Shown in pieces: positions 31,020 to 63,590 of a stretch of DNA of 64,000 nt. A model generated the notes under the pieces. That model did not search any database, was not told the origin of the DNA, and worked only from the letters and a program-made list of their open reading frames with translations. The DNA comes from Alicyclobacillus fastidiosus. Lineage in GTDB: Bacteria > Bacillota > Bacilli > Alicyclobacillales > Alicyclobacillaceae. The stretch lies in the NCBI RefSeq assembly GCF_026651875.1, contig NZ_CP104067.1, positions 2,790,001 through 2,854,000 of the forward strand. The letters run 5' to 3'. Made by a program: the position numbers and the translations under genes. The first letter of the stretch is position 1. Each line of letters opens with the position of its first letter.

Positions 31020-31109
31020 ATTTTGTGGTGGAATAAGTCGGTTGAAACCCTTTTAATATTGTATCAATATACAATTTTGCGTCGACACTGTTCTGTCGCA
31101 TATGGGCAG
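31020..31109 (+). repeat. 90-bp structured intergenic repeat, copy a
   Basis: The copy contains the hairpin ATTGTAT-CAAT-ATACAAT (31058-31075) and ends TGTCGCATATGGGCAG. The core begins 50 bases before the end of GGGCAG, the same spacing as in the other copies. The 5' end is diverged. It lies 61 bases before an acetyltransferase gene. Confidence 0.65.
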
Positions 31110-31170
31110 TTTAATTCAATTCGTAAAGATTATTTGAAAACACACTCGGATGATGGATTGGAAGTGACTT

Positions 31171-31689
31171 ATGAACATTCGTCTGTTGGACGACTTTGAC
31201 GCCCAAGAGTATAAGGAAGTTAGGTTGCGTGCATTGAAAAATGATCCCGATTCATTTGGATCAAAGTATGAGCAAGAAGCAACTAGACCTTTGGGGAATT
31301 TTATAGAGAGGATACAGCATACAAAAGATCAATTTACGTTGGGATGTTTTGACGACAGCGACACATTAGTTGGCATTGTCAATTTTGCACGTGAGAACAG
31401 ACTTAAGACGACACATAAAGGAAATATCTACGGTATGTACATAGAGCCTCAATTTCGAGGACGGGGGTTAGGTAAAGCCCTATTGTTAGCTCTCATTGAA
31501 AGGGCAACAAAAGAATGCGAAGGGTTGGAACAGATTCATTTAACGGTTGTGTCTAATAACGAATCAGCAAAACGGCTATATACCTCGCTGGGGTTTGAAG
31601 TTTACGGTGTAGAACCACATGCCTTGAAGTTTGATGGACATTATTTCGATGAGGACTTAATGGTTTTAAGATTAGCGATCTTGAACTAG
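31171..31689 (+). CDS. GNAT-family N-acetyltransferase
   Basis: The 172-residue protein has a GNAT fold: MNIRLLDDFDAQEYKEVRLRALK start, the acetyl-CoA-binding motif A as IEPQFRGRGLGKALL, and the C-terminal NESAKRLYTSLGFEVYG segment. It transfers an acetyl group to an unknown amine, possibly a drug or metabolite. It is a single gene framed by a 90-bp repeat upstream and an IS1111 remnant that begins right after its stop codon. Confidence 0.88.
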   Translation: MNIRLLDDFDAQEYKEVRLRALKNDPDSFGSKYEQEATRPLGNFIERIQHTKDQFTLGCFDDSDTLVGIVNFARENRLKTTHKGNIYGMYIEPQFRGRGLGKALLLALIERATKECEGLEQIHLTVVSNNESAKRLYTSLGFEVYGVEPHALKFDGHYFDEDLMVLRLAILN

Positions 31690-31795
31690 TCATAATGAAC
31701 GACACCGGCCCCATTTCGTAGGTCTTGGATTACACTGAATCTTGAGAGACCAGTGCAGAGCCACATACGAAAGAGCAGCGGTACGATGTCAAGAC
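31690..31795 (+). mobile_element. Left-end remnant of an IS1111-type element
   Basis: This stretch matches the left end of the IS1111-type element at 58008 (TCATAATGAACGACACCGG..., GAGACCAGTGCAGAGCCACATACGAA) but stops where the transposase gene should begin. It is attached directly to the stop codon of the acetyltransferase gene. It is a truncated relic. Confidence 0.75.
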
Positions 31796-31816
31796 CCTAA
31801 GGCAACATAATATTTT

Positions 31817-31883
31817 TTGAATCGCTGCTTTTGTGGAGGTGGGGCCAAATTTGGCAATACTCAACTAAGCCCACCCTACCTAG
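31817..31883 (+). pseudogene. Uncharacterised 92-residue gene, 5' part (split by IS)
   Basis: A frame beginning TTG at 31817 (LNRCFCGGG..., SPPYL) reaches the IS target site CTAG and rejoins in the same frame with 33509-33720 when the element is removed. The start codon is tentative and no good ribosome binding site is seen. The two cysteines at the start could bind metal. Confidence 0.4.
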
Positions 31884-33504
31884 GAGCGTGTCCGAGTAAT
31901 CCCTGAAGTATTTTGTAAAAGGAAATTTCCGGATCAATAACGAAGTCCCCTGTATTGGTATTCACAGTGGAGGCTTCGAATCTTGGGAAAAAAGTTTCGT
32001 GACTACGACCCGAACCAACTCATTCTACTACCACCGGGGTTAAATGAATGGCTACCTGACGGCCACCTGGCGAACTTTGTCAGTGATGTGGTCGATCATA
32101 TCGATATCTCCATCATTACAAAACAGTACGAACAAGAACTGCGAGGTTTTCCCCCGTACCACCCGGCAATGTTATTGAAGATTCTGGTTTACGCATATTG
32201 CACAGGCATGTACTCTTCCAGAAAGATCGCAAAGGCCTGTCAGGATGTAGTGGCGTTCCGAGTCCTGTCCGCAAATCAGTTCCCGGATTTCCGGACAATC
32301 AGTGATTTTCGGAAACGCCATTTGGTCACCTTCAAAGAACTTTTCTTGGAAGTCTTGAAGATTGCCCAACATGCAGGGATGGTTAAGCTCGGGCATGTAT
32401 CGCTGGATGGCAGCAAGATTCGGGCAAACGCATCCAAACATAAAGCGATGAGTTACGAGCGGATGAAGCAGCAAGAGCAACGACTCCGCCAAGAAATCGC
32501 CGAGCTTACGCAGCAGGCTGAACGCACCGACCATAGTGAAGATAAAAAGTACGGTAACACCATGGGCGATGAACTCCCTGAAGAGTTAGCCCGTAGAGAG
32601 ACCCGGTTGGCAAAAATTCAGGAAGCAATGTCCTCTCTGGAGAAAGAGGCCAAGGAAAGAGTGGAACAACAGCAACAGAAAGACGAACAACAAGACAAGA
32701 AGGACGATGACAACGGCCCCACCAACCAGACAGGCGCCAGGAAACGCGGTCGTCCACGTAAGGAGAGTCATCTCGCAGGTGTTCCGGAGGACAAGGCTCA
32801 ACGCAACTTCACGGATCCGGAATCTCGCATTATGAAATCGAAAGACGGCTTTATCCAAGCATACAATGTGCAGGCTGTCGTCGATGAAGAGTACCAAATC
32901 ATTGTTGCAACAGATGTTATAGACCACACAAATGACCACGGTGTCCTGCGTACAATGGTCGAAATGACGGCGGAGAATACGAAAGCGACGATGCACAAAA
33001 TCTCATGTGATGCTGGCTACTTTGCCGAAGACGACGTGACATGGCTTCAAGAGAAAGAAATTGACCCATACATCGCAACAGGTCGTCAAAAGCACAATGA
33101 AGTGCCTGAGTCACCGAGAGGACGAATACCGAAACACTACACCATTAAGCAACGTATGACTCGGAAACTAAAAACAAAGAAGGGCCGTGCCGTCTACGCG
33201 AGACGCAAGGCTATCGTAGAGCCTGTGTACGGTCAAATTAAGGGTTGTCGACGATTCGACCAATTCTCACTTCGAAGCCTTGAGAAGGTCAGAGGAGAAT
33301 GGTCGTTAGTTACCATGTGCCATAATCTGCTTAAGATATTCAAATACGGTCATATAAACTGGGCAACGTGCTAAAGATGGTGCTTAACCGACCAGTCCCC
33401 GTCTAATGAAGTAAGTGCCCATGGGGAAAGTCACCCATAGTCGAATAAAATATGGAACTGAACTCAAATGCAGAAAGTCTAAGCCGCAATACTCGGACAC
33501 GCTC
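31884..33504 (+). mobile_element. IS1182-type insertion sequence, 1621 bp, copy 1
   Basis: The inverted ends are GAGCGTGTCCGAGTA (left) and its reverse complement (right). The target tetranucleotide CTAG is duplicated at 31880-31883 and 33505-33508. A second copy of the same length lies at 46158-47778 and differs at only two positions that I found, both silent in the transposase gene. Confidence 0.92.
31983..33374 (+). CDS. IS1182-type DDE transposase
   Basis: The 463-residue transposase has an N-terminal DUF772-like domain (YDPNQLILLPPGLNEWLPDG, then PYHPAMLLKILVYAYC), a charged Glu/Gln-rich coiled stretch (about 165-235), and a C-terminal DDE domain with ATDVIDHTNDHG, SCDAGYFAEDDV and VEPVYGQIKGCR. 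It is identical in protein sequence to the one at 46257. The start codon is TTG, preceded by GGAGG. Confidence 0.92.
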   Translation: MGKKFRDYDPNQLILLPPGLNEWLPDGHLANFVSDVVDHIDISIITKQYEQELRGFPPYHPAMLLKILVYAYCTGMYSSRKIAKACQDVVAFRVLSANQFPDFRTISDFRKRHLVTFKELFLEVLKIAQHAGMVKLGHVSLDGSKIRANASKHKAMSYERMKQQEQRLRQEIAELTQQAERTDHSEDKKYGNTMGDELPEELARRETRLAKIQEAMSSLEKEAKERVEQQQQKDEQQDKKDDDNGPTNQTGARKRGRPRKESHLAGVPEDKAQRNFTDPESRIMKSKDGFIQAYNVQAVVDEEYQIIVATDVIDHTNDHGVLRTMVEMTAENTKATMHKISCDAGYFAEDDVTWLQEKEIDPYIATGRQKHNEVPESPRGRIPKHYTIKQRMTRKLKTKKGRAVYARRKAIVEPVYGQIKGCRRFDQFSLRSLEKVRGEWSLVTMCHNLLKIFKYGHINWATC

Positions 33505-33508
33505 CTAG

Positions 33509-33720
33509 GAACATGGGATGTACTGCAAGGAACCAATGAAAATCTAAAGGAACTTGGCATTTCCCAATCTGTAATTGATTTTGCGAACTTAACCAGAGAC
33601 GAAGTGGTCGCGGGAATTCCAGGGCCGCGCCCTATGCCCGAAGATTGGAGTCCCAAACAGCATCCGCAATATCATCCGTTCGCACAACTTCTCGAGGAAG
33701 CCAAACGTCGGTTCGAATGA
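33509..33720 (+). pseudogene. Uncharacterised 92-residue gene, 3' part
   Basis: The frame following the duplicated CTAG reads GTWDVLQGTNENLKELGI, VIDFANLTRDEVV, GIPGPRPMPEDWSPKQHP and ends YHPFAQLLEEAKRRFE. It is the C-terminal part of the gene begun at 31817. It does not belong to a family I recognise. A separate ATG inside the IS end could drive a chimeric protein. Confidence 0.5.
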
Positions 33721-33837
33721 TCTATATGCGACATAAGCTACGGGGGTGCTCTGGACGGTGAATTTGACACGTCCTTGAAGAACCTCCTACTCGCTCGGTG
33801 GTTGGTTGATGGTGTTACTCGGCTGTAGTCTGTCGGT

Positions 33838-33927
33838 AGTGCAATTTAAGAATTGAGGAATCCGGGCCGCACATAGATGTATGAATATACCTATCTTCGC
33901 CGAGTCCCTTACGGCGCTCTCGGGCAG
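33838..33927 (+). repeat. 90-bp structured intergenic repeat, copy b
   Basis: The core TGTATGAATATAC starts at 33878, flanked by the short stem ATAG (33873-33876)/CTAT (33891-33894). The copy ends GGCGCTCTCGGGCAG at 33927, exactly 50 bases from the core start. It is followed 34 bases later by a histidine phosphatase gene. Confidence 0.75.
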
Positions 33928-33961
33928 GTTTGCGACACCTTGAAAATCAAGGAGGATTGGC

Positions 33962-34584
33962 ATGGGGCGAGTTGTTTTGGTTCAACATTGCCAGTCAGAG
34001 CATCACATAAACGACATGTCAGGTGGATGGACAGATACGCCACTGACGGAGTTGGGGCGTAAACAAGCTCAGCTTATTGCACAGAAGCTAATCCATAGTA
34101 TGAACGGTGATGAATATGTCCTCTATTCTTCCGACTTATTGAGAGCTTCGCAAACCGCCGAAATTCTTGGGAAGAATCTTGGTTTGGAATCCAAAACGGT
34201 GGGCTTAGGGAAATCAACACTGGTGTGGCGACTGGGAAAACGAAAGATTGGGCGAGGGCAAATAGAAATCCCAGAACAGACAATGGCTTTGATTTAGACT
34301 ATCAAGAATTCGAGCAAGGTGAAACCTGGAGACAATTTTACAGACGAGTTTGTGACTGCATGGAGTCAATACACAGGTCGGAAAACACGAAAAACTTGTT
34401 AGTTGTAACCCACGGTGGAACTTTGGCTTACATAACTGCCTGGTGGCTACGATTTTCCGAACAGATGCTGACTACCGCTTATTTCTCGGCATCGCCAGCG
34501 AGTATCTCCATCCTGGCAAAAAACAGGTTTAATCAGAATGTCTTGGAGGTTTTTAACGACACTTCTCATTTGTCGCTATTGTAG
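33962..34584 (+). pseudogene. Histidine phosphatase (phosphoglycerate mutase-like), one frameshift
   Basis: The first frame (33962-34297) starts MGRVVLVQHCQSEHHIN and GGWTDTPLTELGRKQAQ, the histidine-phosphatase N terminus with QHC in place of the usual RHG. After one extra base near 34210 the second frame continues with VATGKTKDWARANRN and the second catalytic histidine in VVTHGGTLAYI, ending at 34584. Without the shift it would be a complete 200-residue enzyme. GGAGG lies 8 bases before the ATG. It lies between repeats b and c as a single cassette-like gene. Confidence 0.75.
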
Positions 34585-34585
34585 T

Positions 34586-34671
34586 AACGGGTGCACCTGT
34601 CCCAGAAGGTTTGGCTTCTGAATAGAAAATTACGGTATCCAAGTTGTTCGCTTTATGGGGCAATCGGGCAG
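34586..34671 (+). repeat. Structured intergenic repeat, copy c (86 bp)
   Basis: The copy begins AACGGGTGCACC directly after the phosphatase gene. It contains a hairpin AGAAG-GTTTGG-CTTCT and the core-like TGAATAGAAAATTACGG at 34619, and ends TGGGGCAATCGGGCAG at 34671. It is the most diverged in the middle but keeps both end motifs. Confidence 0.7.
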
Positions 34672-34713
34672 GTTTGAGACAGAAGACGCTTGGTTGCAAA
34701 AGGGGTGACGCTA

Positions 34714-35142
34714 GTGACGCTGGTTAAGTACGGGAGTCGTTCCATACCCACCGAACGGGTAAAACAGTTGTTGTCATATGCGGTCGGTTCAGCAACGGAT
34801 GAAAAGCTCAGGAATATTTTGGAGCAAGTCTACTTGCAAGGTGATTTCAAACTATATGTTTACATCGATAGCGATGACTCGGCGTTAGGCATCATTGGAT
34901 TCGAGGGAGAAGGAGTCTCTGCTGAAATCCTTCACATCGCCGTCGATGAACACAAGCGAAACTGTGGCATCGGTCGAAGAATGATTGATGAACTTCTTAT
35001 GTTGGAGAATCTCTTCGAATTAACTGCCGAGACGGACCGTGATGCGGTTGGATTCTATAGTAAATATGGATTCGAAATACAGTCTCTTGGTGAGAAATAT
35101 CCTGGTGTTGAGCGGTTTCATTGTCGACTTTTGTTCAGGTAA
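34714..35142 (+). CDS. GNAT-family N-acetyltransferase
   Basis: The protein of about 142 residues has acetyl-CoA-binding motif A in LHIAVDEHKRNCGIGRRMIDE and the terminal AVGFYSKYGFEIQSLG segment of GNAT enzymes. GTG at 34714 is chosen because AAAAGGGGTG lies 6-7 bases upstream; a TTG at 34690 is an alternative. It follows repeat c and is not followed by a clear repeat; the next gene starts only 28 bases later, so they may share one unit. Confidence 0.8.
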   Translation: MTLVKYGSRSIPTERVKQLLSYAVGSATDEKLRNILEQVYLQGDFKLYVYIDSDDSALGIIGFEGEGVSAEILHIAVDEHKRNCGIGRRMIDELLMLENLFELTAETDRDAVGFYSKYGFEIQSLGEKYPGVERFHCRLLFR

Positions 35143-35170
35143 AGTTAAATTCAAGAGTTGGGGGTGTAAC

Positions 35171-35965
35171 TTGCAACACGTAAACCTTAAATGTTCTTTG
35201 TCACAACTGCAAATCGAAGACCGTTTGAAGTATAGCCCTAACATTGTGGAGCTTCAGCTATTCGAGAATGACATCTCTTCACCGAATTCCATTGTTGAGG
35301 CAATCCAACAGCTCAAAGAGAATAGCGTCAAGGTTTTCCTTCATCACCCCATGAAAGTAAATGGGAAGTTCTTAGATGTCTTGAGTAAAGACCCTGAAGT
35401 CTACGAGTTTTATCGTCTGTCCTGTTCAGTATTGAATGAAATATGCAACTCAGAAGATGTATTTTGTGTTGTGCATCCTCATTACGAGAAATGTGAAAGT
35501 GGAATGGTAGATATTTCTGACGCAGTGAAGATTATTGAATGCTCGAACGCCTTAAAGGAAGCTATTCAGGATGTTCGCACATCTACCTATGACCGTTTTT
35601 TGTGGGAAAACGCACCGAGAGGGATTTTTTCAAGTGCAAATCGCAATTGGCTAACACATGTTGTTGAACCTATACAGCTACCTATTTGTTACGATATAAG
35701 CCACTCGTTTATGTCATTTCGTGGTAACAATTTAGACTTGGAACGAGACCTTAGAAATGCGTTCCCCTTTACTCGCCATTACCATGTTGTAGACAGTGCA
35801 GGAACAGAGGTTCATGATGCAATGTCTTTGGGGCTTGGAGGAATCAATTGGTCAAGATTGAAGCCGTACATTTTGCAAAGGGATTTCATATTTGAGATTG
35901 ATTTACCTAACTATAACGACTGCACCCCTATGATTCAGAGTGCTGTTTATTTTGATTCCATATAA
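35171..35965 (+). CDS. Xylose isomerase-like TIM-barrel protein
   Basis: The 264-residue protein resembles the AP endonuclease 2/sugar phosphate isomerase family. It shows PNIVELQLFENDI, CVVHPHYEK, LWENAPRG, ICYDISHSFM, HVVDSAGTEVHDAMSLG and a terminal FEIDLPNYND segment, with His, Glu and Asp residues at typical metal-binding places. The TTG start with GGGGGTG 5 bases upstream is preferred, since the longer frame would overlap the acetyltransferase. The reaction is unknown. Fifteen bases after its stop an insertion sequence begins. Confidence 0.75.
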   Translation: MQHVNLKCSLSQLQIEDRLKYSPNIVELQLFENDISSPNSIVEAIQQLKENSVKVFLHHPMKVNGKFLDVLSKDPEVYEFYRLSCSVLNEICNSEDVFCVVHPHYEKCESGMVDISDAVKIIECSNALKEAIQDVRTSTYDRFLWENAPRGIFSSANRNWLTHVVEPIQLPICYDISHSFMSFRGNNLDLERDLRNAFPFTRHYHVVDSAGTEVHDAMSLGLGGINWSRLKPYILQRDFIFEIDLPNYNDCTPMIQSAVYFDSI

Positions 35966-35979
35966 TCATGCCTTCTTGA

Positions 35980-37876
35980 AATAGCCTCTCGGCATTGGAA
36001 AGCAGAAAAGCAAGAGAAAGCGGAATATCTTCCAAGAATCCACTGGAAAATTTGCGAGTAACGGTTGAAGCGGCGGTGTTCCTTGAAAAAAGGTATAGCA
36101 AACAGAGCGATGACGGTCCGATTTTCAAAAAGTCATCGCTGGAGATGGTATGATTGGGGTATTCTTAGGCTGACAAGAGTAGCGAACTCAGGTCGAGCGT
36201 ACTTTCTTGGAACCAAGCGTCCATGTGTTGGCACATGGCAATGCCATAGATGCGGACGGTCCACATCATGGTACTGCGATGCTTGGCAGCTTCGAGGAGA
36301 AAATCCTCTTTCGCTCGCTTGTTGCTACGCTCGCAGGTGGTTCTGCGTTTGTAGACATCGTTCCACTCGTTGCTGTTGCGGGCAACGGGTGGAAACAAGC
36401 GAGGATTGTGTTTGGTATATGTGTGTACGCATCTTCCGTAAGGCGAATCGGAACAGGGCGTATCACAAGTTACCACGCCTTTGACAACGAGCGGACAATA
36501 GTATTTTCGGCGACCGCGCGTGTAGTCGTAGCCACGATCTTTCATCTCCAGCCCCTTTTTACAAAACGGAACCCCAGTAGGGGAAAATGTGATGTCATCC
36601 TTGCGAACCCCCTTGCTCCCCGTGCTGCGCAGGTTTAAATCAATGAACGGCTTTACTTTCCGTGACAGCAGGTACTCGTAGATTGGCAGTGCGTCGTGCG
36701 CGGCATCTAAAATGGCTTTGTCCCAGGTGTATTCACGAAAGCGTTCGACGAACTCACGAGCACTGACCACCCAAGAGGTCGCATCATGGCGCGAGGCTCG
36801 TTGAAGTCTGGGGTAAAGTGGCAGGTCGTAAGGACTATCCGCAGCAACAAACGTGTAAAGGTGATAACCGAAGAAGTACCTGTTTCGATAACTGTCCCAG
36901 CCCATGTCACAGTCGGGTTGAGAATAGATACGATAGCATCTGCATGGCACGATACCGAGTTCACGACAGTTACAAAGTCGCTTGTTACGAACTTGGGTAG
37001 CTGTTTGAAGCGGCATTCCGTCACCTGCGATTGACAGTGCGTTCGTGTCGCCCAGTAAGCCTAGAGTGGCAGATACGGTAAGGAACTGCTGTTGAAAGAG
37101 CCCAAGCAATCTGTCAAATGGCTGTGGCTTGGTGGCTGAGCGCTTTTGTAGCTGAGCCATGAGGTTTGCGATTTTGCTATACGCTTTGGTTGGTGCCTTT
37201 ACTCCCTTCTTGCCATCTTTGACTTTCTTTCGATTGAGTCTGAGTTTGGGTGAAAGATTCGCGGAGGTATGAGACCACAGCCGCTTAAAGAAATGGTAGA
37301 AGGTACCGACACCAGGCGTTTTCCCGTACTCAAAGCCACTCAGAATGGCATACAACGGGCAACGATGCAATTGATTGACCCACTCTGTAATCGATGGTTC
37401 TCCGACCTGCAGCATGAGTAGATAGGAACGAAGTAAGTCGGCAGGGTCAATGGACCTTGGACCACGACACGAAAAAGCTCCTTCGAGTAAGCGAAACGTG
37501 TCAGAGAGGTCGGTAATCCAGAACTTCTTAACAAGCGACCAGTCCTTTGCGACAAAGAGGAGCGTGCCATTGCCGTAGTGAATACGAAGTTGTTGCTCAA
37601 CGAACGACTGATACTGCTGATGAGACCGCACCAAGGGTAACATAACGCAACCCCCATTTCGATGAGATAGAGCTGTTAAGCCCTTCTCGGCGATTGTTGG
37701 GGTGATTCTAAAAAGTCAAGTATTATTTGGCGCACAGCGGATTTTCTTTTCATGGTGGTGTTGAATTTCCAATTTTGAATTGTCAAGTGGGGCTGACGAA
37801 CATGGGGGCAAACGAAGAACCCTTCAACAACAGAACCGTTGATGGTTCAGCGAAAATCCAATGCCGAGAGGCTATT
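35980..37876 (-). mobile_element. DDE insertion sequence with AATAGCC ends, copy 1 (intact)
   Basis: The ends are perfect 20-bp inverted repeats: AATAGCCTCTCGGCATTGGA at the left and its reverse complement at 37857-37876. The element carries one complete transposase gene. Two related but diverged copies lie at 49697-51532 and 56125-58007. No clear target duplication was found. Right of it begins repeat d. Confidence 0.88.
36165..37643 (-). CDS. DDE transposase of the AATAGCC-ended element
   Basis: The 492-residue transposase starts MLPLVRSHQQYQSFVEQQL and contains an N-terminal PADLLRSYLLMLQVGEPSI domain, a basic linker, and a catalytic core with SIAGDGMPLQT, AILDAAHDALPIYEYL and RRTTCERSNKRAKED. 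Cysteine pairs around YYCPL and CDTPCSDSPYGRC suggest a zinc site within the core. The superfamily is DDE (IS4/IS5/IS1182-like), but I cannot name the IS family with certainty. This is the only intact copy in the window. Confidence 0.85.
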   Translation of the reverse strand: MLPLVRSHQQYQSFVEQQLRIHYGNGTLLFVAKDWSLVKKFWITDLSDTFRLLEGAFSCRGPRSIDPADLLRSYLLMLQVGEPSITEWVNQLHRCPLYAILSGFEYGKTPGVGTFYHFFKRLWSHTSANLSPKLRLNRKKVKDGKKGVKAPTKAYSKIANLMAQLQKRSATKPQPFDRLLGLFQQQFLTVSATLGLLGDTNALSIAGDGMPLQTATQVRNKRLCNCRELGIVPCRCYRIYSQPDCDMGWDSYRNRYFFGYHLYTFVAADSPYDLPLYPRLQRASRHDATSWVVSAREFVERFREYTWDKAILDAAHDALPIYEYLLSRKVKPFIDLNLRSTGSKGVRKDDITFSPTGVPFCKKGLEMKDRGYDYTRGRRKYYCPLVVKGVVTCDTPCSDSPYGRCVHTYTKHNPRLFPPVARNSNEWNDVYKRRTTCERSNKRAKEDFLLEAAKHRSTMMWTVRIYGIAMCQHMDAWFQESTLDLSSLLLSA

Positions 37877-37881
37877 AAACT

Positions 37882-37971
37882 ATAGGGGGCATAAATCCCA
37901 CAACGGCTTTGTGAAAGCTCTCCATATACATGCAAAGAGTCGGTTCTCAGGTTTGTTGCGTTCTCGGGCAG
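37882..37971 (+). repeat. 90-bp structured intergenic repeat, copy d
   Basis: The copy begins AGGGGGCATAAATCCCA, shows the stem CTTTG (37907-37911)/CAAAG (37933-37937), and ends TTGCGTTCTCGGGCAG at 37971. Its first bases lie 6 bases after the end of the insertion sequence. The 5' block is nearly identical to copy g. Confidence 0.75.
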
Positions 37972-38031
37972 GTTAATTCAAGAAGAAACAGAATTTGTCA
38001 CCAATGATGTTTTGTGTTGGGAGAGTTGAAT

Positions 38032-38238
38032 ATGCCTAATTGCCCCAAATGTGATGGTGAAATGTTTGAAATGGAAAGTGTACCTGTTCAGAACGATCCG
38101 ACCGAACTCTTCGCTGTGAAGTGTTCGAATTGTAATACAGCTATTACGATGTTCCCCCCTTATTGGAATACAACAACAGGGACGACCGTTAGCCAATTAG
38201 ACTATCTGTCGGACTTGTTTCGAAGAAAAAAGAAATGA
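38032..38238 (+). CDS. Small zinc-ribbon protein
   Basis: The 68-residue protein has two CxxC knuckles (CPKC at the N terminus and CSNC about 25 residues later), the pattern of a zinc ribbon, and a basic C-terminal tail (RRKKK). The ATG at 38032 has GGGAGAG 8 bases upstream. It sits alone between repeats d and k. It may bind nucleic acid or protein; no function is evident. Confidence 0.75.
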   Translation: MPNCPKCDGEMFEMESVPVQNDPTELFAVKCSNCNTAITMFPPYWNTTTGTTVSQLDYLSDLFRRKKK

Positions 38239-38322
38239 CAATTAATTCAACTCATCCCCTTGCTGTTCAGGTGCATGGATATTCAGTGTGACGTTCCAGG
38301 ACTTTGTGTCGCTAAAGGGCAG
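38233..38322 (+). repeat. 90-bp structured intergenic repeat, copy k
   Basis: The core TGCATGGATATTCAG starts at 38272 and the copy ends TGTCGCTAAAGGGCAG at 38322, 51 bases apart as in the others. The 5' block is diverged and touches the stop of the zinc-ribbon gene. No clear same-strand gene follows; the next convincing genes are on the opposite strand. Confidence 0.65.
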
Positions 38323-38438
38323 ATTAGATCAATAGTGTGCCTAGCTAAGGGATATCCCGTCTGGGTATGGACAGAGAAGCCTGGCTTACGTCAAGGAAGA
38401 CATTTAAGACCAGGAACATTGGGAGTCCGTCTTAAATT

Positions 38439-38546
38439 TTAGATGCAGTGACAAGTAAGTGCACCAGCTCCGACTGAACAACCGACAGCAGTGCAAGCGT
38501 AAACCGAAGCTCTTGCTCCGACTACGGGGCGAGGGCATTTTTTCAT
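38439..38546 (-). CDS. Possible 35-residue cysteine-rich peptide
   Basis: An ATG overlapping the stop of the lipoprotein gene (ATGA) opens a 35-codon frame, MKKCPRPVVGARASVYAC followed by a Gly/Ala/Val/Cys-rich tail ending LTCHCI. It has five cysteines. The overlap would allow translational coupling, but there is no separate ribosome binding site, so this could equally be the degraded C-terminal end of a longer lipoprotein. Confidence 0.3.
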   Translation of the reverse strand: MKKCPRPVVGARASVYACTAVGCSVGAGALTCHCI

Positions 38547-38698: not shown

Positions 38699-38712
38699 TT
38701 TAGTTGTCTCCT

Positions 38713-53672: not shown

Positions 53673-53804
53673 ACGATAACAGGCATCATATCAGAATATT
53701 AAAACTTATAATTTCTCTGTTTTGGGGTGTCCATTCTATTGACTTAATACCAATTGAATTTTTAACGATGGAGATGAGAACTACTTAACAGCTCATCTGT
53801 CGGT

Positions 53805-53895
53805 AACGGAGGGCTTTTATCGAAGATGCGCGCTGACGATCCTCTGTATGAAAATACAGCGGTTCTAGGGAACCCTTTATGGCGTTCTCGGGCAG
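53805..53895 (+). repeat. 91-bp structured intergenic repeat, copy f
   Basis: The copy begins AACGGAGGGC. The stem CGCTG (53831-53835)/CAGCG (53857-53861) encloses the perfect hairpin TGTAT-GAAA-ATACA at 53845-53858, partly overlapping it. The copy ends GGCGTTCTCGGGCAG at 53895, 51 bases after the core start. It precedes a deaminase-like gene. Confidence 0.75.
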
Positions 53896-54020
53896 CTATG
53901 TGCAAAAAGAAACTAGCTATCTATTTGCATATAAATATGTAATTTATTCTATATCTGTTTAAATTTATTGCATATACAACAAGAGATTGTAGGCAATTAG
54001 ATTCCGAGAGAGGGGGCCCC

Positions 54021-56021: not shown

Positions 56022-56124
56022 TTACATAGGTGATGTCATTGTTTATTTAACCGAATGAACGACGAAAAATGTTATGAGCTTAACGGGAGCCTATGCGACA
56101 GATGATATTGGGCTTTCTTATTGC

Positions 56125-58007: not shown

Positions 58008-58108
58008 GAATTAGTCATAATGAACGACACCGGCTCCGTTTCGCACATCGTGGTTTACACTGAAGTTAGGAGACCAGTGCAGAGCCACATACGAAGGGAG
58101 CCGATACT

Positions 58109-59236
58109 ATGAAGACTATCACAAAGTTTGTAGGTTTGGATGTGTCTAAGGAAGGCATCGCAGTTGCGGTAGCAGACGAGGGCCGTGGTGAACCGAGATA
58201 TATCGGAATGTTCCCTCATACGGTGGAAGCTGTAAGGAGCCTGGTACATAGATTGGCTTCAGATGGCGTCGAACTGGAGTTTTGTTACGAAGCAGGTCCG
58301 ACAGGCTATGGACTGTATCGACTACTGCGCGCAATGGACATGCCGTGTACCGTTGTCGCACCATCCCTCATTCCAGTTCGCCAAGGAGACCGAGTGAAGA
58401 CAGACAAGCGAGATGCGTTGAGATTGGCACAGTTGTTCCGTGCTGGTGAATTGGTTGCAGTCTTTGTCCCGAATGAGGAAAACGAGTCATTACGGGATTT
58501 AGTGCGGGCACGGGAAGATGCGGTGGAAGACCGTACACGGGCAAGGCATCGGCTATCCAAGTTCCTACTGAGACACAATCGGCGTCCTGAAACTAAACTT
58601 AGTGCTTGGGGAGCTATGCATCGTCGGTGGTTGGACGGTCTCAAATGGGCGGATCGCCGAGAACAAGTGGTGTACCAGGAGTATTTGCATCACTTAGACG
58701 AGATTGAGGGACGTCTCAAACGTCTTGAGGCAGCTATACACTTGGAGGCAACGGAAAGCGAGAGAGCTCCAGTGATTCAGGCTTTGCAAACACTGAAGGG
58801 TGTTGCAGAGGTCATCGCAACCTCTTTGGTCGCTGAGGTTGGGGAGTTTCGTCGTTTCCGGAATCCAAAGCAGTTAATGGCATATGCCGGACTGGTACCA
58901 TCCGAGTATTCGAGTGGTGTATCTCGAAAGCAAGGTAGAATCACGAAGTCTGGGAATGCACATCTCAGACGGGTTCTTGGTGAGGCTGCCTGGTGTTACC
59001 GATATAAACCCGCCATTAAAGGAAAGATTCGTAAGCGGCAAGAAGGTCAGAGTCCCAAGATCCAGGACATTGCTTGGCGAGCACAGGACAGGCTCCATCG
59101 AAAGTATATGAAGATGGTATCTAGAGGTAAGCATCACAATGTAGCCGTCACTTCAGTAGCAAGAGAATTGTTGGGATTTATATGGGCCATCGCATGTGAG
59201 GCAGAGCGACAGATGGAGACATCGACTGCAGTATAA
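58109..59236 (+). CDS. IS1111-type DEDD transposase
   Basis: The 375-residue recombinase has an N-terminal RuvC-like DEDD domain (FVGLDVSKEGIAVAVAD, FCYEAGPTGYGLYRLL, RVKTDKRDALRLAQLF) and a C-terminal Tnp20 domain with LKGVAEVIATSLVAEVG, the catalytic-serine segment YAGLVPSEYSSGVSRKQG and GNAHLRRVL. It is complete. AAGGGAG stands about 9 bases before the ATG. Enzymes of this type are guided by an RNA from their own element. Confidence 0.92.
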   Translation: MKTITKFVGLDVSKEGIAVAVADEGRGEPRYIGMFPHTVEAVRSLVHRLASDGVELEFCYEAGPTGYGLYRLLRAMDMPCTVVAPSLIPVRQGDRVKTDKRDALRLAQLFRAGELVAVFVPNEENESLRDLVRAREDAVEDRTRARHRLSKFLLRHNRRPETKLSAWGAMHRRWLDGLKWADRREQVVYQEYLHHLDEIEGRLKRLEAAIHLEATESERAPVIQALQTLKGVAEVIATSLVAEVGEFRRFRNPKQLMAYAGLVPSEYSSGVSRKQGRITKSGNAHLRRVLGEAAWCYRYKPAIKGKIRKRQEGQSPKIQDIAWRAQDRLHRKYMKMVSRGKHHNVAVTSVARELLGFIWAIACEAERQMETSTAV

Positions 59237-59493
59237 GTTTTGGAAAAGAACTGTAGTAAAGAATAATTGTAATTAGGGTTGAAGGTCGGGACTGAAGGCA
59301 CAGGAATCCGGTACGGGGAAACCTCGTCCCCCGATTGTGCAAGGTCCAGAACCTGACGCACGAAGCTAGTCCGAGGCAGCCCCATGACGGAGGTACGAAA
59401 TGTGGTAACCAACCCACGGATATCAGTGTGCCAACCGTCGACGAACCTTGCCTTCGGTCCGGGCTTTCAACCCCATCACGACACGGGGCTTGA
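59237..59493 (+). ncRNA. Candidate guide (seek/bridge) RNA region of the IS1111-type element
   Basis: The 257 non-coding bases between the transposase stop and the right subterminal repeat are the position where IS1111 elements are known to encode their target-choosing RNA. The region has hairpin potential, for example GGGGA-AACCTCG-TCCCC near 59318-59334. The boundaries of the RNA are not defined by sequence alone. Confidence 0.5.
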
Positions 59494-59509
59494 CGGTGTC
59501 GTTCATATC

Positions 59510-59599
59510 AACGGGGGCATAAATCCCATAAGCACTGTTGCTTCAAACCGCATGAACATACAGTGACTGAGGACCATGTGTTACTGCACTACTGGGCAG
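59510..59599 (+). repeat. 90-bp structured intergenic repeat, copy g
   Basis: The copy begins AACGGGGGCATAAATCCCA. The stem CACTGT (59533-59538)/ACAGTG (59560-59565) encloses the core CGCATGAACATAC, and the copy ends CTGCACTACTGGGCAG at 59599, 51 bases from the core start. The IS1111-type element ends exactly at its 5' edge. Confidence 0.75.
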
Positions 59600-59642
59600 T
59601 TTAGAGACAGAGTATCGATGAATGAAGAGGATGGAGATTGGC

Positions 59643-60446
59643 ATGGGGAATCTGCAAGCTGGATATGGTCTGGACAGTAATGGATTTATTGTAAGTGACG
59701 TTGGTTTAGACAAGATCGATAGTGTCTATTTGCCTTGCATACGAGAGTCTGTGGAGAATCTAATACGGTTGTTTTCAAATGAATTACACAGTGTCTATGT
59801 GTACGGCAGCGTAGCCCGAGGTGAAGCTATAGCTCTTAAGTCAGACTTGGACCTCCTCGCTTTGTTCAATGCTACGCTGAGTCCTGATGGGGCGGCTGAA
59901 TTAAAACATCTTGCTAAAGAATTGTCTCAAAAGTATGGCTCTCTGGTTCGTGATGTTGGCATAGCTGTTGCACATTACGACTATGCGGTTGATCCAGATA
60001 ATTACTACGAACAGGCTTTTCTTACGGAACTCTGCGTTTGTGTGCACGGAAAGAATCTTCGAGATCGATTCGGTCCGTACAAACTCACGTCGGAGATCGC
60101 CATAAGCTTTAATGGAGATATTTGTGAAGTTTTTACTCGGACAATAAGTCGGTTAGAAGTAGCTTCTAACGGGGAGTTTAAAATAATTTCTCAAGGCTTT
60201 GCTCGTAAACTCATTCGAACGTACTATGCAATGGTGATGGCACGATCTCAGGTTTGGTCCACACGACTTCATGAGCAGTCCGAAGTGTTTATCCATTACT
60301 TCCCCGATAAAGAACCAGCTGTTCGTACCCTGCAGAAGTGGGTCGAGGAGTCACCGTCAGACCGAGAACCCGTATTAGAGCTCTTTAGGAGGGAGGGTAA
60401 GTGGGCTTGTGAGAACTTTACACGTGAAGCCAGTATTCCTTCTTGA
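59643..60446 (+). CDS. Nucleotidyltransferase, aminoglycoside-adenylyltransferase-like
   Basis: The protein of about 267 residues has the MNT-type nucleotidyltransferase motif VYVYGSVARGEAIALKSDLD (GS-x-ARGE-x-SDLDLL) with the two metal-binding aspartates, followed by a helical C-terminal domain. Relatives adenylylate aminoglycosides, but the substrate here is not proven. ATG 59643 with GGAG 6 bases upstream is chosen; an earlier ATG at 59622 is in frame. It sits alone between repeats g and h. Confidence 0.8.
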   Translation: MGNLQAGYGLDSNGFIVSDVGLDKIDSVYLPCIRESVENLIRLFSNELHSVYVYGSVARGEAIALKSDLDLLALFNATLSPDGAAELKHLAKELSQKYGSLVRDVGIAVAHYDYAVDPDNYYEQAFLTELCVCVHGKNLRDRFGPYKLTSEIAISFNGDICEVFTRTISRLEVASNGEFKIISQGFARKLIRTYYAMVMARSQVWSTRLHEQSEVFIHYFPDKEPAVRTLQKWVEESPSDREPVLELFRREGKWACENFTREASIPS

Positions 60447-60449
60447 ACA

Positions 60450-60540
60450 AACGGGTGCATTAACTGAAGAAGCTCAATGCGGCAACAAATGCATGAATAT
60501 TCGGTTTCGCTTTTCATGATGTTGTGTCGCTATGGGGCAG
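60450..60540 (+). repeat. 91-bp structured intergenic repeat, copy h
   Basis: The copy begins AACGGGTGCATTAACTGAAG 3 bases after the nucleotidyltransferase stop. The core TGCATGAATATTCGG starts at 60490 and the copy ends TGTCGCTATGGGGCAG at 60540. The 5' block matches copy i almost exactly. The following gene (LysE type) is on the opposite strand. Confidence 0.8.
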
Positions 60541-60606
60541 GAATGTGCAAGAAGAAAAACGTAAAGGTGCGGCTAGGGAAGATGAATGTGACGAAGTTTT
60601 TGCCAT

Positions 60607-61212
60607 TTACATACTCACAAGTGAAAACACTCCCAGCCCCGCCATTAGCATACCTGCAATAATATTGACCCAACGTAAGCGACCGGTGTCAAACCAATGT
60701 TTGAATAAGCTGACTCCACCGCTTAACAAGAACCACCAGAAGGCTGAGCCAACAAACACACTGAGCACGAGCATAAAGGATGACCAGACGGAACTCGTTC
60801 CGCCTCCTACAAACCCCAGTCCTGCAAACATGCCAACAAAGGTGAGGATTGTCATTGGATTTGTAATCGTCAGGAACAAGGTCGACAGGTACATGGAAAA
60901 CAAGCCGTTTCCATTTAGTTGTGCGGCTTGATTCGATGGCGAAGCACGGAACGTTTTGATTCCGAGATAAAGGAGAAAAAATCCACCGACTAGGTGTAAC
61001 CATCGTTGCTCACGAATAAGCAACTGCGAAATTACGGTAAATCCAAATGCAGCAATACAACTGTACAGCGTATCGGCAGTAGCAGCACCAAGACCGGAGA
61101 GGAGACCAGCGAGCCTACCTTTATTCAGCGTTCGCTGTATACAGAGCAGCCCTATAGGACCAACTGGTGCGGCGACTGAAAAACCGAGAATGAGTCCTTT
61201 GATAAAAATCAT
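60607..61212 (-). CDS. LysE/RhtB-family exporter
   Basis: The 201-residue inner membrane protein with about six hydrophobic segments starts with the family motif GLILGFSVAAPVGPIGLLC, followed by GLLSGLGAATADTLYSCIA and FLTITNPMTILTFVGMFAG. Members export amino acids or other small molecules. AAAGGCGGG precedes the ATG. It is the only gene of the repeat-flanked set that runs in the opposite direction, lying between repeats h and i. Confidence 0.9.
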   Translation of the reverse strand: MIFIKGLILGFSVAAPVGPIGLLCIQRTLNKGRLAGLLSGLGAATADTLYSCIAAFGFTVISQLLIREQRWLHLVGGFFLLYLGIKTFRASPSNQAAQLNGNGLFSMYLSTLFLTITNPMTILTFVGMFAGLGFVGGGTSSVWSSFMLVLSVFVGSAFWWFLLSGGVSLFKHWFDTGRLRWVNIIAGMLMAGLGVFSLVSM

Positions 61213-61314
61213 GTTGTAGCCCGCCTTTTAGGAGTAGTACCGCTATTCTATTGAACAGTTGTACACCCATGCAATTGAAAGTCATCCCTAAGACCCACAG
61301 TTATTAAAAAAACA

Positions 61315-61326
61315 AACGGGTGCATT
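61315..61326 (+). repeat. Structured intergenic repeat, copy i, left piece (split by IS110)
   Basis: AACGGGTGCATT is the start of a repeat copy, broken by the IS110-type element. It continues at 62902 with ATTAACTGAAGAA, the exact continuation seen in the uninterrupted copy h. Confidence 0.75.
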
Positions 61327-61334
61327 CGTATTAT

Positions 61335-61571
61335 GAGGTCAGCCAGTCATCATTTCTGGTTGACCTCTCTTTGTGTAGAGGTTTTCATTGCGGTAGCCGG
61401 GTAGAACGTCCGGGGGCGTGGGTCGATGAACCCGTGAGCTAATCCGTTCACCCCCTACTTGTAGAAGCATGTTTGAGGCTGGTTGAGACATCGATCTCGT
61501 ATCACAAGCGAAGCTATGAACTGCAAGATGGATAGGGGTTACCGGTATTACACATCAAAGGAGATGTTCAC
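61335..61571 (+). ncRNA. Candidate bridge RNA region of the IS110-type element
   Basis: The non-coding left end starts with a strong 12-bp stem, GAGGTCAGCCAG (61335-61346)/CTGGTTGACCTC (61356-61367). The GC-rich sequence after it can form further hairpins. In IS110 elements the target- and donor-binding bridge RNA is transcribed from exactly this position and begins with a stem-loop. The RNA ends and loops need to be modelled. Confidence 0.55.
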
Positions 61572-62774
61572 TTGAATCCAGTCATTGGTCTGGATGTGGC
61601 TAAAGGAGAAAGCATCGCTCAAGCATTCTTAGATAAAGGGACGCCTCACGGTAAACAGTTCACTGTCGTTCACACTCATGACGGTCTTGAAGACTTCCAT
61701 CAGGTTTTACGGGAAGTCGAAGCAAAGTCAGGTCTGCAACCAACAATTATCCTTGAAGCGACTGGGCACTATCATGCACCGATCATTCGATTCCTAGATG
61801 ACCAGAATTATGTGTATATCATGGTAAATCCATTGATCGCGTACTCAGCCAAGAAATCCAGTCTGCGTAAGGTAAAGACCGACGCGGTAGACGCTTACAG
61901 CTTATGCGAGCTCTTCTACAAAGAGGATTTTGAGCCCTTCAAGAAGAGGGGATTGCAACTGTTAAACCTACGTAGCCTAACCCGGCAGCACGCTGCGATA
62001 ACCCGACTATCCGTTCAGACCAAACTACAATTCCAGGCTGTTTTAGACCAAGTGTTTCCCGAATACAAAGGAGTGTTTGGGGACTTATATTCCAAAGTCT
62101 CATTACGGACGTTACTGGAGTTCCCGACCGCTGACTCAGTGCTGAATGTAACGGAAGCAAAGCTGACCAAAAGAGTTTCAGAGTTATGTAAGAGTCGGTC
62201 GGAACGTTGGTCGAGAGAAAAGGCACGCGAAATCATTGCTGCCGCTACGCGTAACCCGTTCCGAAATGTTTTATTAGAGGGGTATCTGCTTAGTCTGAAG
62301 ATGTACATCCAAATGATTCTTCAGTACCAAGAGCATCTATCCCACCTTGAAAAAACGATAGATGCCCTTGCCGAAGAGATTGAAGAATATAAGATTATCC
62401 AATCTATCCCCGGAGTCGGTGAAAAAATCGCTGCCACGATTATTTCAGAAATCGGAGAGATAGACCGGTTTAATCACCCAAAGAAGCTCGTCGCTTTTGC
62501 AGGCATAGATCCAAGCGTACACTCGTCTGGTAAGTTCACTGCAACCATCAATCGTATTACAAAGCGAGGTTCAAGCCGGTTACGACACAGCTTGTATTGT
62601 GCAGTCGAATGCGGCTTACGGAAAACCCGCAATAAAAGGCTTAAAACGTTCTACGACAAGAAACGTGCAGAAGGTAAACCTTACAAGCAAGCCGTGATCG
62701 CCTGCGTCAACAAACTGATTCACTGGATCTATGTGTTGCTAAAACGCAAAGAGCTTTTTGTAGATCTGAATTAA
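61572..62774 (+). CDS. IS110-type DEDD transposase
   Basis: The 400-residue recombinase has the DEDD domain (PVIGLDVAKGESIAQAFLD, ILEATGHYHAPIIRFL, KVKTDAVDAYSLCELF) and the C-terminal Tnp20 domain (IIQSIPGVGEKIAATIISEI, AGIDPSVHSSGKFTATINRI, RGSSRLRHSLY). It is intact. The TTG start has AAGGAGATG about 6 bases upstream. It is not closely similar to the IS1111-type enzyme at 58109. Confidence 0.92.
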   Translation: MNPVIGLDVAKGESIAQAFLDKGTPHGKQFTVVHTHDGLEDFHQVLREVEAKSGLQPTIILEATGHYHAPIIRFLDDQNYVYIMVNPLIAYSAKKSSLRKVKTDAVDAYSLCELFYKEDFEPFKKRGLQLLNLRSLTRQHAAITRLSVQTKLQFQAVLDQVFPEYKGVFGDLYSKVSLRTLLEFPTADSVLNVTEAKLTKRVSELCKSRSERWSREKAREIIAAATRNPFRNVLLEGYLLSLKMYIQMILQYQEHLSHLEKTIDALAEEIEEYKIIQSIPGVGEKIAATIISEIGEIDRFNHPKKLVAFAGIDPSVHSSGKFTATINRITKRGSSRLRHSLYCAVECGLRKTRNKRLKTFYDKKRAEGKPYKQAVIACVNKLIHWIYVLLKRKELFVDLN

Positions 62775-62800
62775 CATCCAAATTAAAGATATTAAAGTAA

Positions 62801-62830
62801 AACCTTCCATCAAGATAAGGAAGGTTCTTT
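62801..62830 (+). terminator. Rho-independent terminator of the IS110 transposase gene
   Basis: AACCTTCC (62801-62808) pairs with GGAAGGTT (62819-62826) and is followed by CTTTG. It is 26 bases after the transposase stop codon. Confidence 0.7.
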
Positions 62831-62901
62831 GCCCTGCTCATTTTAATCTAACACATGTACACAAATTTTTTAATCGGTAATCTTGACAAGCTATTAGCTG
62901 G

Positions 62902-62981
62902 ATTAACTGAAGAACTACTCGACCGATGGATTGCATGACTATACGGTCCGAAGCAGCAACCCTTGTGTCGCTCTCGGGCAG
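62902..62981 (+). repeat. Structured intergenic repeat, copy i, right piece
   Basis: The piece contains ATTAACTGAAGAA, the stem GACCG (62921-62925)/CGGTC (62944-62948) around the core TGCATGACTATACGG, and the end TGTCGCTCTCGGGCAG at 62981. Joined to 61315-61326 it gives a full repeat of about 90 bases. It precedes a small membrane protein gene. Confidence 0.8.
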
Positions 62982-63034
62982 TAATGCGACAGAAATCCTT
63001 TTTACACCAAACACATACTGGGTGAGGTTGATGT

Positions 63035-63507
63035 ATGAAAAGACGACGATGGTTCATCTATATCGTGGTTGGAGTTCTATTTGGAGTCTTTGACTTTTAT
63101 TTACCGATTTTCATTCCACGTTGGTCTACTAACTCCATTTTATTGGATCAGTTAGCCGCAATCTCAACTTTTATTATTTGGCTTGTTCCGAGTGTACCGA
63201 TTATTCTTTACGAAGCCAGAGTCTCTCGGTCTAGGTTGTTACCGGCCGTAGCAAGTACCTAACGTGGTGTATCTCTGTCATTGTTTATTACCTAACCAAT
63301 ATCGTCCAATTGGCTATTGGGAGTTCAGCACAACCATATCTACGTATCTCCAATCATAAGGCTCCAGTCTTTTGGAGTAACTGGGGCAATCTATTAGTGA
63401 CTTACATATTATGGCATATACTTGAATGGTCTGTTGTTGCCGTGGTTGGTGGTTTTATCATCGGATTTTTGATTAGCTTTTTTTATTTTCTCTTCTCGCG
63501 AAATTAG
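63035..63507 (+). pseudogene. Small membrane protein with one frameshift
   Basis: The first frame (63035-63262) reads MKRRRWFIYIVVGVLFGVFD and continues to a stop after LLPAVAST. The next frame continues with CISVIVYYLTNIVQLAIG, LLVTYILWHILEWSVVAVVG and ends GFLISFFYFLFSRN at 63507. Joined they make a protein of about 155 residues with four or five membrane helices. GAGG lies before the ATG. It lies between repeats i and j. The family is not recognised. Confidence 0.65.
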
Positions 63508-63590
63508 GCAATCTTTCAGCAATGTCAGTGTATCCGCACTGCATGAAGATGTAACGGCACCTATCATGTGCTTACTGAATTTTGGGGCAG
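63501..63590 (+). repeat. 90-bp structured intergenic repeat, copy j
   Basis: The core TGCATGAAGATG starts at 63540, preceded by the hairpin CAGTG-TATCCG-CACTG. The copy ends CTGAATTTTGGGGCAG at 63590, 51 bases from the core start. The 5' block is diverged and overlaps the end of the membrane protein gene. Confidence 0.65.

What the first reader, a model, noticed from the sequence alone, without database searches (positions are those of the whole stretch)
31020..63590. Undescribed ~90-bp structured repeat family separating unrelated single genes
Ten copies (31020, 33838, 34586, 37882, 38233, 53805, 59510, 60450, 61315+62902, 63501) share three blocks. A 5' start of the type AACGGGTGCATT is clear in six copies. 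A core TGYATGAnnATAC can form a small hairpin. The 3' end is of the type TGTCGCTCTCGGGCAG. The core start lies 50-51 bp from the end of GGGCAG in nine copies and 53 in copy c, and total length is 86-92 bp. I saw no copies in the catabolic island or in the lipid-gene region. The copies lie between small genes of unrelated function, like recombination sites in a gene-cassette array.
Basis: partly seen in the sequence, partly recalled or inferred. Interest (0 to 1): 0.93.

Follow-up and report, generated by a model that had tools for sequence, protein, structure and literature searches.

The report
Second integron-like gene-cassette system, in Bacilli
These repeats, found in many Bacilli genomes and statistically linked to a recombinase family of their own, are likely paired recombination sites that would let the bacteria capture and shuffle genes as integrons do, but with unrelated parts.

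Summary
The repeat is real and not local: ten copies in the window, 108 model matches in the genome (E<=0.01), and matches in 78 of 398 sampled Bacilli genomes. Each copy holds two inverted-repeat sites, a left one (spacer mostly GGGGGC or GGGTGC) and a right one (GGGCAG). Genes, often single, lie between copies (15 copies in 18 kb in one relative, all in one orientation). A Xer-like tyrosine recombinase of ~280 residues, not IntI, goes with the repeats: all 13 recombinase-bearing genomes among 41 have them, and 7 of 10 loci of its family against 0 of 74 other Xer-like loci. A lone right-type site, attI-like, lies beside it in 20 of 22 loci read. Near-identical cores occur between unrelated neighbours, with edges exactly at the two spacers; some gene modules recur, also across species, behind different cores. 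I read this as an integron-like capture system of alternating gene and core modules, near integrons and Acinetobacter dif modules but a member of neither. Recombination is inferred, not shown. Against it: most element-bearing genomes lack a close recombinase, folding is weak, and few gene modules could be followed exactly from site to site. Eight literature searches listed no description.

The parts
31003..31125 (+). Element 1: right site GGGCAG at 31104; no left site recovered
   Evidence: R1 32.4 bits; right site 31.2 bits with matrices trained without the window
31171..31689 (+). Gene module: GNAT acetyltransferase; the 586 nt from GGGCAG onward recur at 98% after a different core at L276:5216 in the same genome
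   Evidence: Pfam
33832..33943 (+). Element 2 (right site 33922; no left site recovered)
33962..34584 (+). Gene module: histidine phosphatase match in frame 33962-34297; overlapping frame 34225-34584 not tested
34574..34687 (+). Element 3 (left site 34589, right site 34666)
34690..35142 (+). Gene module: GNAT acetyltransferase, followed by 35039-35965, TIM-barrel-like below the Pfam cut-off
37870..37987 (+). Element 4 (left site 37885, right site 37966); an IS end likely abuts the left site
38225..38338 (+). Element 5, weak (right site 38317; no left site recovered)
53794..53911 (+). Element 6 (left site 53809, right site 53890); what follows its GGGCAG also follows the attI-like site of a broken recombinase copy elsewhere in the genome (95% in the 60 nt compared)
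59498..59615 (+). Element 7 (left site 59513, right site 59594); an IS110 right end likely abuts the left site
59622..60446 (+). Gene module: nucleotidyltransferase-like protein
60438..60556 (+). Element 8, best-scoring match in the genome (left 60453, right 60535)
   Evidence: R1 96.8 bits
61315..61326 (+). Element 9, 5' piece, cut after GGGTGCATT
   Evidence: sequence
61572..62774 (+). IS110-family transposase inserted in element 9
62881..62997 (+). Element 9, 3' piece as matched by the model (right site 62976); element letters resume at 62902
63491..63606 (+). Element 10, weak (right site 63585; no left site recovered)
58109..59236 (+). IS110-family transposase next to element 7

Best explanation
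The repeats are likely paired recombination sites that bound gene cassettes of an integron-like system in Bacilli, in which a linked Xer-like tyrosine recombinase (not IntI) would insert, excise and shuffle genes at two 6-bp crossover points per repeat. Shown by sequence: each repeat reads A-GGGNGC-B ... D-GGGCAG-E, where A, B, D and E are ~13-bp arms of similar consensus; gene modules (from GGGCAG to the next GGGNGC) alternate with short core modules (GGGNGC to GGGCAG); near-identical cores occur between unrelated neighbours with edges at the spacers; a lone right-type site lies beside the recombinase gene in 20 of 22 loci read, in the place of attI. Inferred: the recombinase binds the arms; like spacers recombine (right with right or attI, left with left); right-site exchange would release or insert a circle of gene plus core, and left-site exchange would give a gene a new core. 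Exchange on duplex DNA is more likely than on a folded single strand, because each site alone is an inverted repeat and the whole-element hairpin is weak.
For: Spread: 108 matches at E<=0.01 in this genome (150 of 1173 first-look candidates scored), 26 of 41 genomes, 61 of 398 Bacilli genomes with R1 and 38 of 398 with R2, 78 in all. Arrays: in G004, 47 matches in a 140-kb stretch, 41 on one strand; 15 in 18 kb in L073, all on one strand; 13 in 8 kb in L139, all on one strand, some weak. Of 70 modules, IS not removed, the longest ORF is on the same strand in 49, opposite in 20, absent in 1. Recombinase: found at E<=1e-40 in 13 of 41 genomes (some copies cut or broken), all 13 element-positive; in 398 Bacilli genomes 23 of 31 recombinase-positive genomes have elements against 55 of 367 others, odds ratio 16, p 6e-12; in 84 loci all 35 R2 matches at E<=0.01 fall in 7 of the 10 loci of this family, 0 in 74 other Xer-like loci, 14 of which are Bacilli by title. 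The family is one clade, support 100/96, among 68 recombinases. Lone right site 69-160 nt past the recombinase stop in 10 of 10 Alicyclobacillus-type loci read, and beside the gene in 10 of 12 Bacillaceae-type loci read by eye, degenerate sites counted. Breakpoints: with 25 IS- or intron-flanked sites of 181 dropped, 25 pairs share only the core, 13 only the following module, 4 only the preceding sequence, 1 preceding sequence plus core, 1 all. In the 14 core-only pairs with core identity >=0.88, identity falls from 1.00 at the last base of GGGCAG to 0.29 at the next (background 0.28) and rises from 0.21 to 0.93 at the first G of the left spacer (background 0.29 and 0.53). Module copies that run from right site to the next site: 99% over 889 nt (this genome and A. 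dauci), 91% over ~1003 nt (G004 and this genome), 98% over 586 nt within this genome.
Against: No recombination was observed. 55 of 78 element-positive Bacilli genomes lack a close recombinase, and A. dauci with 41 matches has only 33% relatives; 8 of 31 recombinase-positive genomes have no element match. 20 of 70 modules have their longest ORF on the opposite strand. Only 3 of 9 non-IS, non-intron module pairs end at a recognised site; one runs off the held DNA and five end elsewhere or unclearly. One member passes the NCBI cut-off of NF040815, an equivalog model titled 'site-specific tyrosine recombinase/integron integrase' (224.2 against 220; two others below). Most of the 74 control loci are from other phyla. 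Arms do not covary beyond consensus (a faint hint, 49 of 500 shuffles) and folding is little better than in flanks (mean z -0.76 against -0.31), so the DNA form is open. Pairs share sites and are not independent. Left-site exchange next to a gene rests on 4 pairs from 2 sequence families, and at one of these places (L272:4818) no ORF of 80 residues was read. Thresholds were mine; E-values of home-built models are rough.
Confidence: 0.72

Rival explanations
1. The cores are miniature, recombinase-less forms of a small tyrosine-recombinase element that inserts between genes; the genes are bystanders and are not moved.
For: In 9 of 12 Bacillaceae-type loci the recombinase gene ends at a left site and in 8 of these a right-type site lies upstream of its start, so it sits inside a core-like unit; core-only pairs are the commonest class, 25.
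Against: Three module copies run from a right site to the next site behind different cores, two of them between species; 13 pairs share only the following module; dense single-orientation arrays; in 9 Alicyclobacillus-type loci scanned no left site was found upstream of the recombinase within the ~1.5 kb held.
Confidence: 0.14
2. Host XerC/XerD moves these modules, as in Acinetobacter dif modules, and the recombinase family is incidental.
For: Sites have ~13-bp arms and a 6-bp spacer and two kinds of module alternate; 55 of 78 element-positive genomes lack the close recombinase.
Against: Loci of this family carry the repeats and lone sites next to the gene, other Xer-like loci do not (7 of 10 against 0 of 74); sites face one way and do not alternate in orientation.
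Confidence: 0.07
3. It is a true integron: diverged IntI with diverged attC sites folded as single strands.
For: Same layout of integrase, lone site and cassettes; IS110 elements lie in the sites as IS1111 types do in attC; one member passes the NF040815 cut-off, whose title names integron integrase.
Against: 91-111 bits against the 265-bit cut-off of the IntI model TIGR02249, and the IntI insertion is missing; sites lack attC boxes and fold weakly; preceding gene and core rarely stay together.
Confidence: 0.05
4. The repeats are transcribed regulatory elements (terminators or RNA switches) kept between genes.
For: Bacillaceae forms often hold a terminator-like hairpin followed by T runs.
Against: No covariation, no Rfam match in the window, base-sharp swapping, recombinase link.
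Confidence: 0.02

Closest known systems
Integrons (IntI, attI, attC cassettes)
   Same: Recombinase gene, lone adjacent site, long arrays of genes each followed by a site, on chromosomes and plasmids, IS110-type insertions in the sites
   Different: Recombinase far below the IntI model cut-off and without the IntI insertion; sites unrelated to attC, with two breakpoints; gene and core assort separately; weak hairpin; found in Bacilli, while the IntegronFinder 2.0 paper reports one complete integron in Firmicutes (passages read)
dif modules of Acinetobacter plasmids (pdif sites, XerC/XerD)
   Same: Two module types that must alternate, 6-bp spacers, exchange between sites of like spacer (passages of PMC13141974)
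   Different: A linked recombinase of another clade; all sites in one orientation, told apart by spacer (GGGNGC or GGGCAG); chromosomal arrays of tens of genes
Xer recombinases (XerC, XerD, archaeal XerA)
   Same: Predicted fold, length and invariant R, K, H, R, H, Y (assignment recalled); best solved matches XerD 1a0p by sequence and XerA 5hxy by fold
   Different: Separate clade; below the NCBI XerC and XerD cut-offs; one of three members passes the XerA-type model NF040815

Membership tests
Integron (IntI type) | Integrase of the IntI subfamily (TIGR02249, cut-off 265 bits) | tested here: not met
   91.0, 95.9 and 111.3 bits for three members
Integron (IntI type) | IntI-specific insertion in the catalytic domain (feature named in passages of PMC8138268) | tested here: not met
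   Match coordinates to TIGR02249, read across two members: residues 187 to 199 span profile 181 to 234; no extra helix there in the predicted model
Integron (IntI type) | NCBI model NF040815, titled site-specific tyrosine recombinase/integron integrase (XerA type), cut-off 220 | tested here: inconclusive
   180.6, 224.2 and 212.5 bits: one of three passes
Integron (IntI type) | attC boxes RYYYAAC and GTTRRRY (motif recalled) | tested here: not met
   Right-site consensus of 181 sites: TTaTggCgCTatcGGGCAGnatagtgcAAtAag
Integron (IntI type) | Lone attI-like site next to the integrase gene | tested here: met
   10 of 10 Alicyclobacillus-type loci read (9 of the 19 fetched, plus L326); 10 of 12 Bacillaceae-type loci by eye, degenerate sites and two reversed layouts counted
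Integron (IntI type) | Array of gene cassettes with same-oriented sites | tested here: met
Integron (IntI type) | Gene and its attC form one unit | tested here: not met
   1 pair sharing preceding sequence and core against 25 core-only and 4 preceding-only pairs
Integron (IntI type) | Recombination of a folded single-stranded site | tested here: inconclusive
   weak folding, no covariation; activity not testable here
Acinetobacter-type dif module | Distinct XerC and XerD arms | tested here: inconclusive
   In Bacillaceae-type sites the four arms look alike; in this genome the inner half of arm D differs from the other three
Acinetobacter-type dif module | Neighbouring sites in inverse orientation | tested here: not met
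   Both spacers are G-rich on the same strand
Acinetobacter-type dif module | Two alternating module kinds and a 6-bp spacer | tested here: met
Xer dimer-resolution recombinase | XerC or XerD equivalog cut-off | tested here: not met
   182-213 bits against 329.6 and 335.15

The most novel reading that the evidence does not exclude
A second, independently evolved integron: a gene-capture machine of Bacilli in which genes and their recombination cores are separate, freely re-pairing modules, so that left-site exchange fits new genes with a core and thereby makes new cassettes, the step that is unexplained for classical integrons (that gap is recalled, from no call).
Probability: 0.53. Interest if true: 0.95.

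Novelty: new variant of a known kind. Interest (0 to 1): 0.9.

Why it matters
Integrons are the textbook gene-capture platform, and the IntegronFinder 2.0 paper reports a single complete one in Firmicutes (passages). A parallel system with its own recombinase and sites, with matches in 38 of 145 sampled Bacilli genera by one model and on plasmids of Alicyclobacillus, Sporosarcina and Peribacillus, would add a large unread pool of mobile genes and a second case for asking how cassettes are made and moved. The two-spacer layout makes cassette birth testable with a four-substrate recombination assay.

Tried and rejected
Single-strand hairpin with covarying arms: an early idea from one copy; own-pair complementarity is no better than with shuffled partners, column shuffles show no covariation (faint hint only), RNAalifold predicts no pairs, so it was dropped as the main reading. 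In 13 Bacillaceae-type elements folding z runs from +0.7 to -7.6 on the top strand, the strongest folds being those of the single sites (simple shuffles). Pairing of the A arm with the E arm of the preceding site: not supported. The recombinase trio 18 kb past the window was left aside once one search pointed to another gene. Of 33 pairs that seemed to share only the following sequence, many were IS110 ends or group II introns; 25 of 181 sites were dropped and the counts redone (13 pairs). The apex helix in the structure given to R1 was one column off; the model was kept because it rests mainly on sequence. Plasmid comparisons for module gain or loss between close relatives found none close enough. 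Literature: ten searches, all used. Searches looked for a printed description in Bacilli and their listings showed none, but 61 listed 15 of 37 and 121 listed 12 of 33 papers; two searches served the comparisons. Only open-licence papers are held.
Full report
What was claimed. Ten ~90-bp repeats between unrelated small genes, read as possible recombination sites of a cassette array.

Check. A model built from 27 curated copies, five of them from the window (R1), matches all ten window copies, all on +, and matrices trained without window copies recover all ten right sites. The genome (6.04 Mb) has 134 matches at E<=1 and 108 at E<=0.01, in clusters on the chromosome. No Rfam family matches the window. 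The element is longer than described: both ends are halves of inverted repeats.

Anatomy. Each element is A-GGGNGC-B ... TGCATGAnnATACA ... D-GGGCAG-E. The right spacer is GGGCAG in 167 and GGGTAG in 14 of 181 sites, by construction since GGG[CT]AG was searched; the left spacer as placed is GGGGGC in 37 and GGGTGC in 21, the rest being variants or uncertain placement. In other Bacilli families the elements are shorter (80-100 nt as aligned) and each site alone can be a near-perfect inverted repeat, for example CTTATTGAACTAAC-GGGGCAG-GTTAGTTCAATAAG. Pairing within the two sites is 75% of cells in register against 28-49% when slid. Covariation beyond consensus is absent or faint. Folding of 117 elements as single DNA strands is only slightly better than that of neighbouring DNA (mean z -0.76 against -0.31). 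I favour duplex-site recombination, but a folded form is not excluded.

Arrays. In a relative (G004) a 140-kb stretch has 47 matches, 41 on one strand; L073 has 15 in 18 kb; L139, from another family of Bacilli, has 13 in 8 kb, some weak. Among 70 modules, IS not removed, the median length is 977 bp, the start codon lies a median 77 nt after GGGCAG and the stop a median 40 nt before the left spacer; the longest ORF is on the element's strand in 49, on the other in 20, absent in 1. Gene products include GNAT acetyltransferases, a histidine phosphatase, a short-chain dehydrogenase, DinB_2, glyoxalase and metallo-beta-lactamase-fold proteins and several families of unknown function; some have no Pfam match. 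A plasmid of Alicyclobacillus dauci (NZ_CP104065.1) carries such a region with SDR, MBL-fold and regulator genes.

Recombinase. Of 31 tyrosine-recombinase matches in the genome, one at C1:1168313-1169266 lies 4 kb from the nearest element match and 14 kb from an array; two broken copies elsewhere have element matches on both sides (E 1e-4 to 0.13). Its family (~280 residues; 540 proteins at E<=1e-30, 120 listed) is named in several Alicyclobacillus species, Sulfobacillus harzensis and a Paenibacillus. It occurs in 13 of 41 genomes, all 13 with elements; 13 further element-positive genomes lack it. In 398 Bacilli genomes 31 have it, 78 have elements, 23 both (Fisher p 6e-12). Across 84 loci around recombinases all 35 R2 matches at E<=0.01 fall in 7 of 10 loci of this family: Neobacillus novalis, Bacillus sp. 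ISL-55, Mesobacillus subterraneus, and plasmids of Sporosarcina psychrophila, a strain labelled Arthrobacter citreus, Peribacillus simplex and Cytobacillus solani. Of the other three, L186 has an R1 match. The 74 other Xer-like loci have none; 14 of them are Bacilli by title, the others mostly from other phyla, so host is partly confounded. The family is one clade (100/96) apart from 38 other recombinases, two Xer-like ones of this genome among them. IntI model scores are far below cut-off and the IntI insertion is missing; one of three members passes NF040815, whose title names integron integrase. The predicted fold is Xer-like (mean pLDDT 86, pTM 0.59; XerA first, IntI4 rank 8).

attI-like site. 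In 10 of 10 Alicyclobacillus-type loci read (9 of the 19 fetched, plus L326) a lone right-type site lies 69-160 nt past the recombinase stop; related loci have different sequences after it. In 12 Bacillaceae-type loci, read by eye, the gene mostly runs against the array: 9 have a left site just past its stop, 8 of these a right-type site (some degenerate, such as GGTCAG) upstream of its start; two have the reverse layout, one shows neither; L131 and L152 hold identical copies in one genome. There the recombinase gene sits inside a core-like unit, a fact that favours the first rival.

Breakpoints. For 181 sites of this genome and relatives I compared preceding sequence, core and following module in all pairs. 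Raw classes: 44 core only, 33 following only, 13 preceding only, 2 preceding plus core, 1 all, and 9 with intermediate cores. Many shared flanks were IS110 ends or group II introns; with 25 such sites dropped the classes are 25, 13, 4, 1 and 1, plus 8 with shared preceding sequence and intermediate core, 6 of them attI-type sites. In 14 core-only pairs identity stops at the base after GGGCAG (1.00 to 0.29) and starts at the first G of the left spacer (0.21 to 0.93). Of 21 pairs followed downstream, 9 are neither IS nor intron; three of these end at the next site: 99% over 889 nt (G000 and A. dauci), 91% over ~1003 nt (G004 and G000), 98% over 586 nt (the window's GNAT module, within G000; site seen on one side only). 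One runs off the held DNA and five end elsewhere or unclearly, among them a TPP-enzyme stretch, 99% over 2.2 kb, shared with the A. dauci plasmid (A. dauci identified as G001). One gene (186 residues) with an identical A arm occurs twice in G004 with different cores, and one of those cores is 94-96% identical to cores beside other sequence.

Mechanism. Shown: two alternating module types, base-sharp core edges at both spacers, linked recombinase, lone site. Inferred: which protein does it, on which DNA form, and that like spacers recombine with like. Right-site exchange would insert and excise cassettes; left-site exchange would re-pair genes with cores.

Known systems. It works like an integron and, in its alternating modules, like Acinetobacter dif modules (passages of PMC13141974), but tested defining features of both fail. 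By sequence signature 9 of 181 right sites are followed by IS110 ends and 12 left sites preceded by IS ends, as IS1111 types sit in attC (passages of PMC11187229). Five right sites are followed by group II intron starts, one with its reverse transcriptase confirmed (the parallel with attC introns is recalled). The IntegronFinder 2.0 paper names one complete integron in Firmicutes, in Limnochorda, and a few CALIN (passages). None of the eight description searches listed such a system, two of them with capped lists.

Verdict. A real, widespread, integron-like gene-cassette system of Bacilli; its activity is untested.

Noticed in passing
window 58109-59236 and 61572-62774: Two IS110-family elements sit at the repeats: one likely abuts a left site, the other splits an element inside its left site. 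The same IS ends occur at sites elsewhere in this genome and in relatives.
   Followed up: partly
L011:11887, L272:13528, L282:1381, L298:10134, L304:7668: Group II intron starts lie a few bases after GGGCAG in five right sites of three genomes; one has its reverse transcriptase confirmed by Pfam.
   Followed up: partly
window 36165-37643, end near 37882: An ORF of 492 residues on the - strand, seemingly a transposase; the adjoining end GAGAGGCTATT abuts the left site and recurs before left sites at L077:6667, L272:13528, L281:13161 and L282:10662.
   Followed up: partly
genome C1:2872357-2875938, 18 kb past the window: Three tyrosine recombinases in a row (about 382, 570 and 594 residues), resembling the trios of Tn554 or RIT elements (names recalled).
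   Followed up: no
window 33962-34584: Two overlapping frames, the first matching histidine phosphatase in part; possibly a frameshift.
   Followed up: no
L131, L133, L134 elements: Bacillaceae-type cores often hold a hairpin followed by a T run, like an intrinsic terminator between cassettes.
   Followed up: no
L103, L108, L090 just before the lone site: A TGTGGTAAAATA-like stretch (extended -10-like) lies upstream of the attI-like site and might be a cassette promoter.
   Followed up: no
P0080, P0081, P0089, P0092, P0111: A sub-clade of the recombinase (288-296 residues, with a longer loop); whether it has its own repeats was not examined.
   Followed up: no
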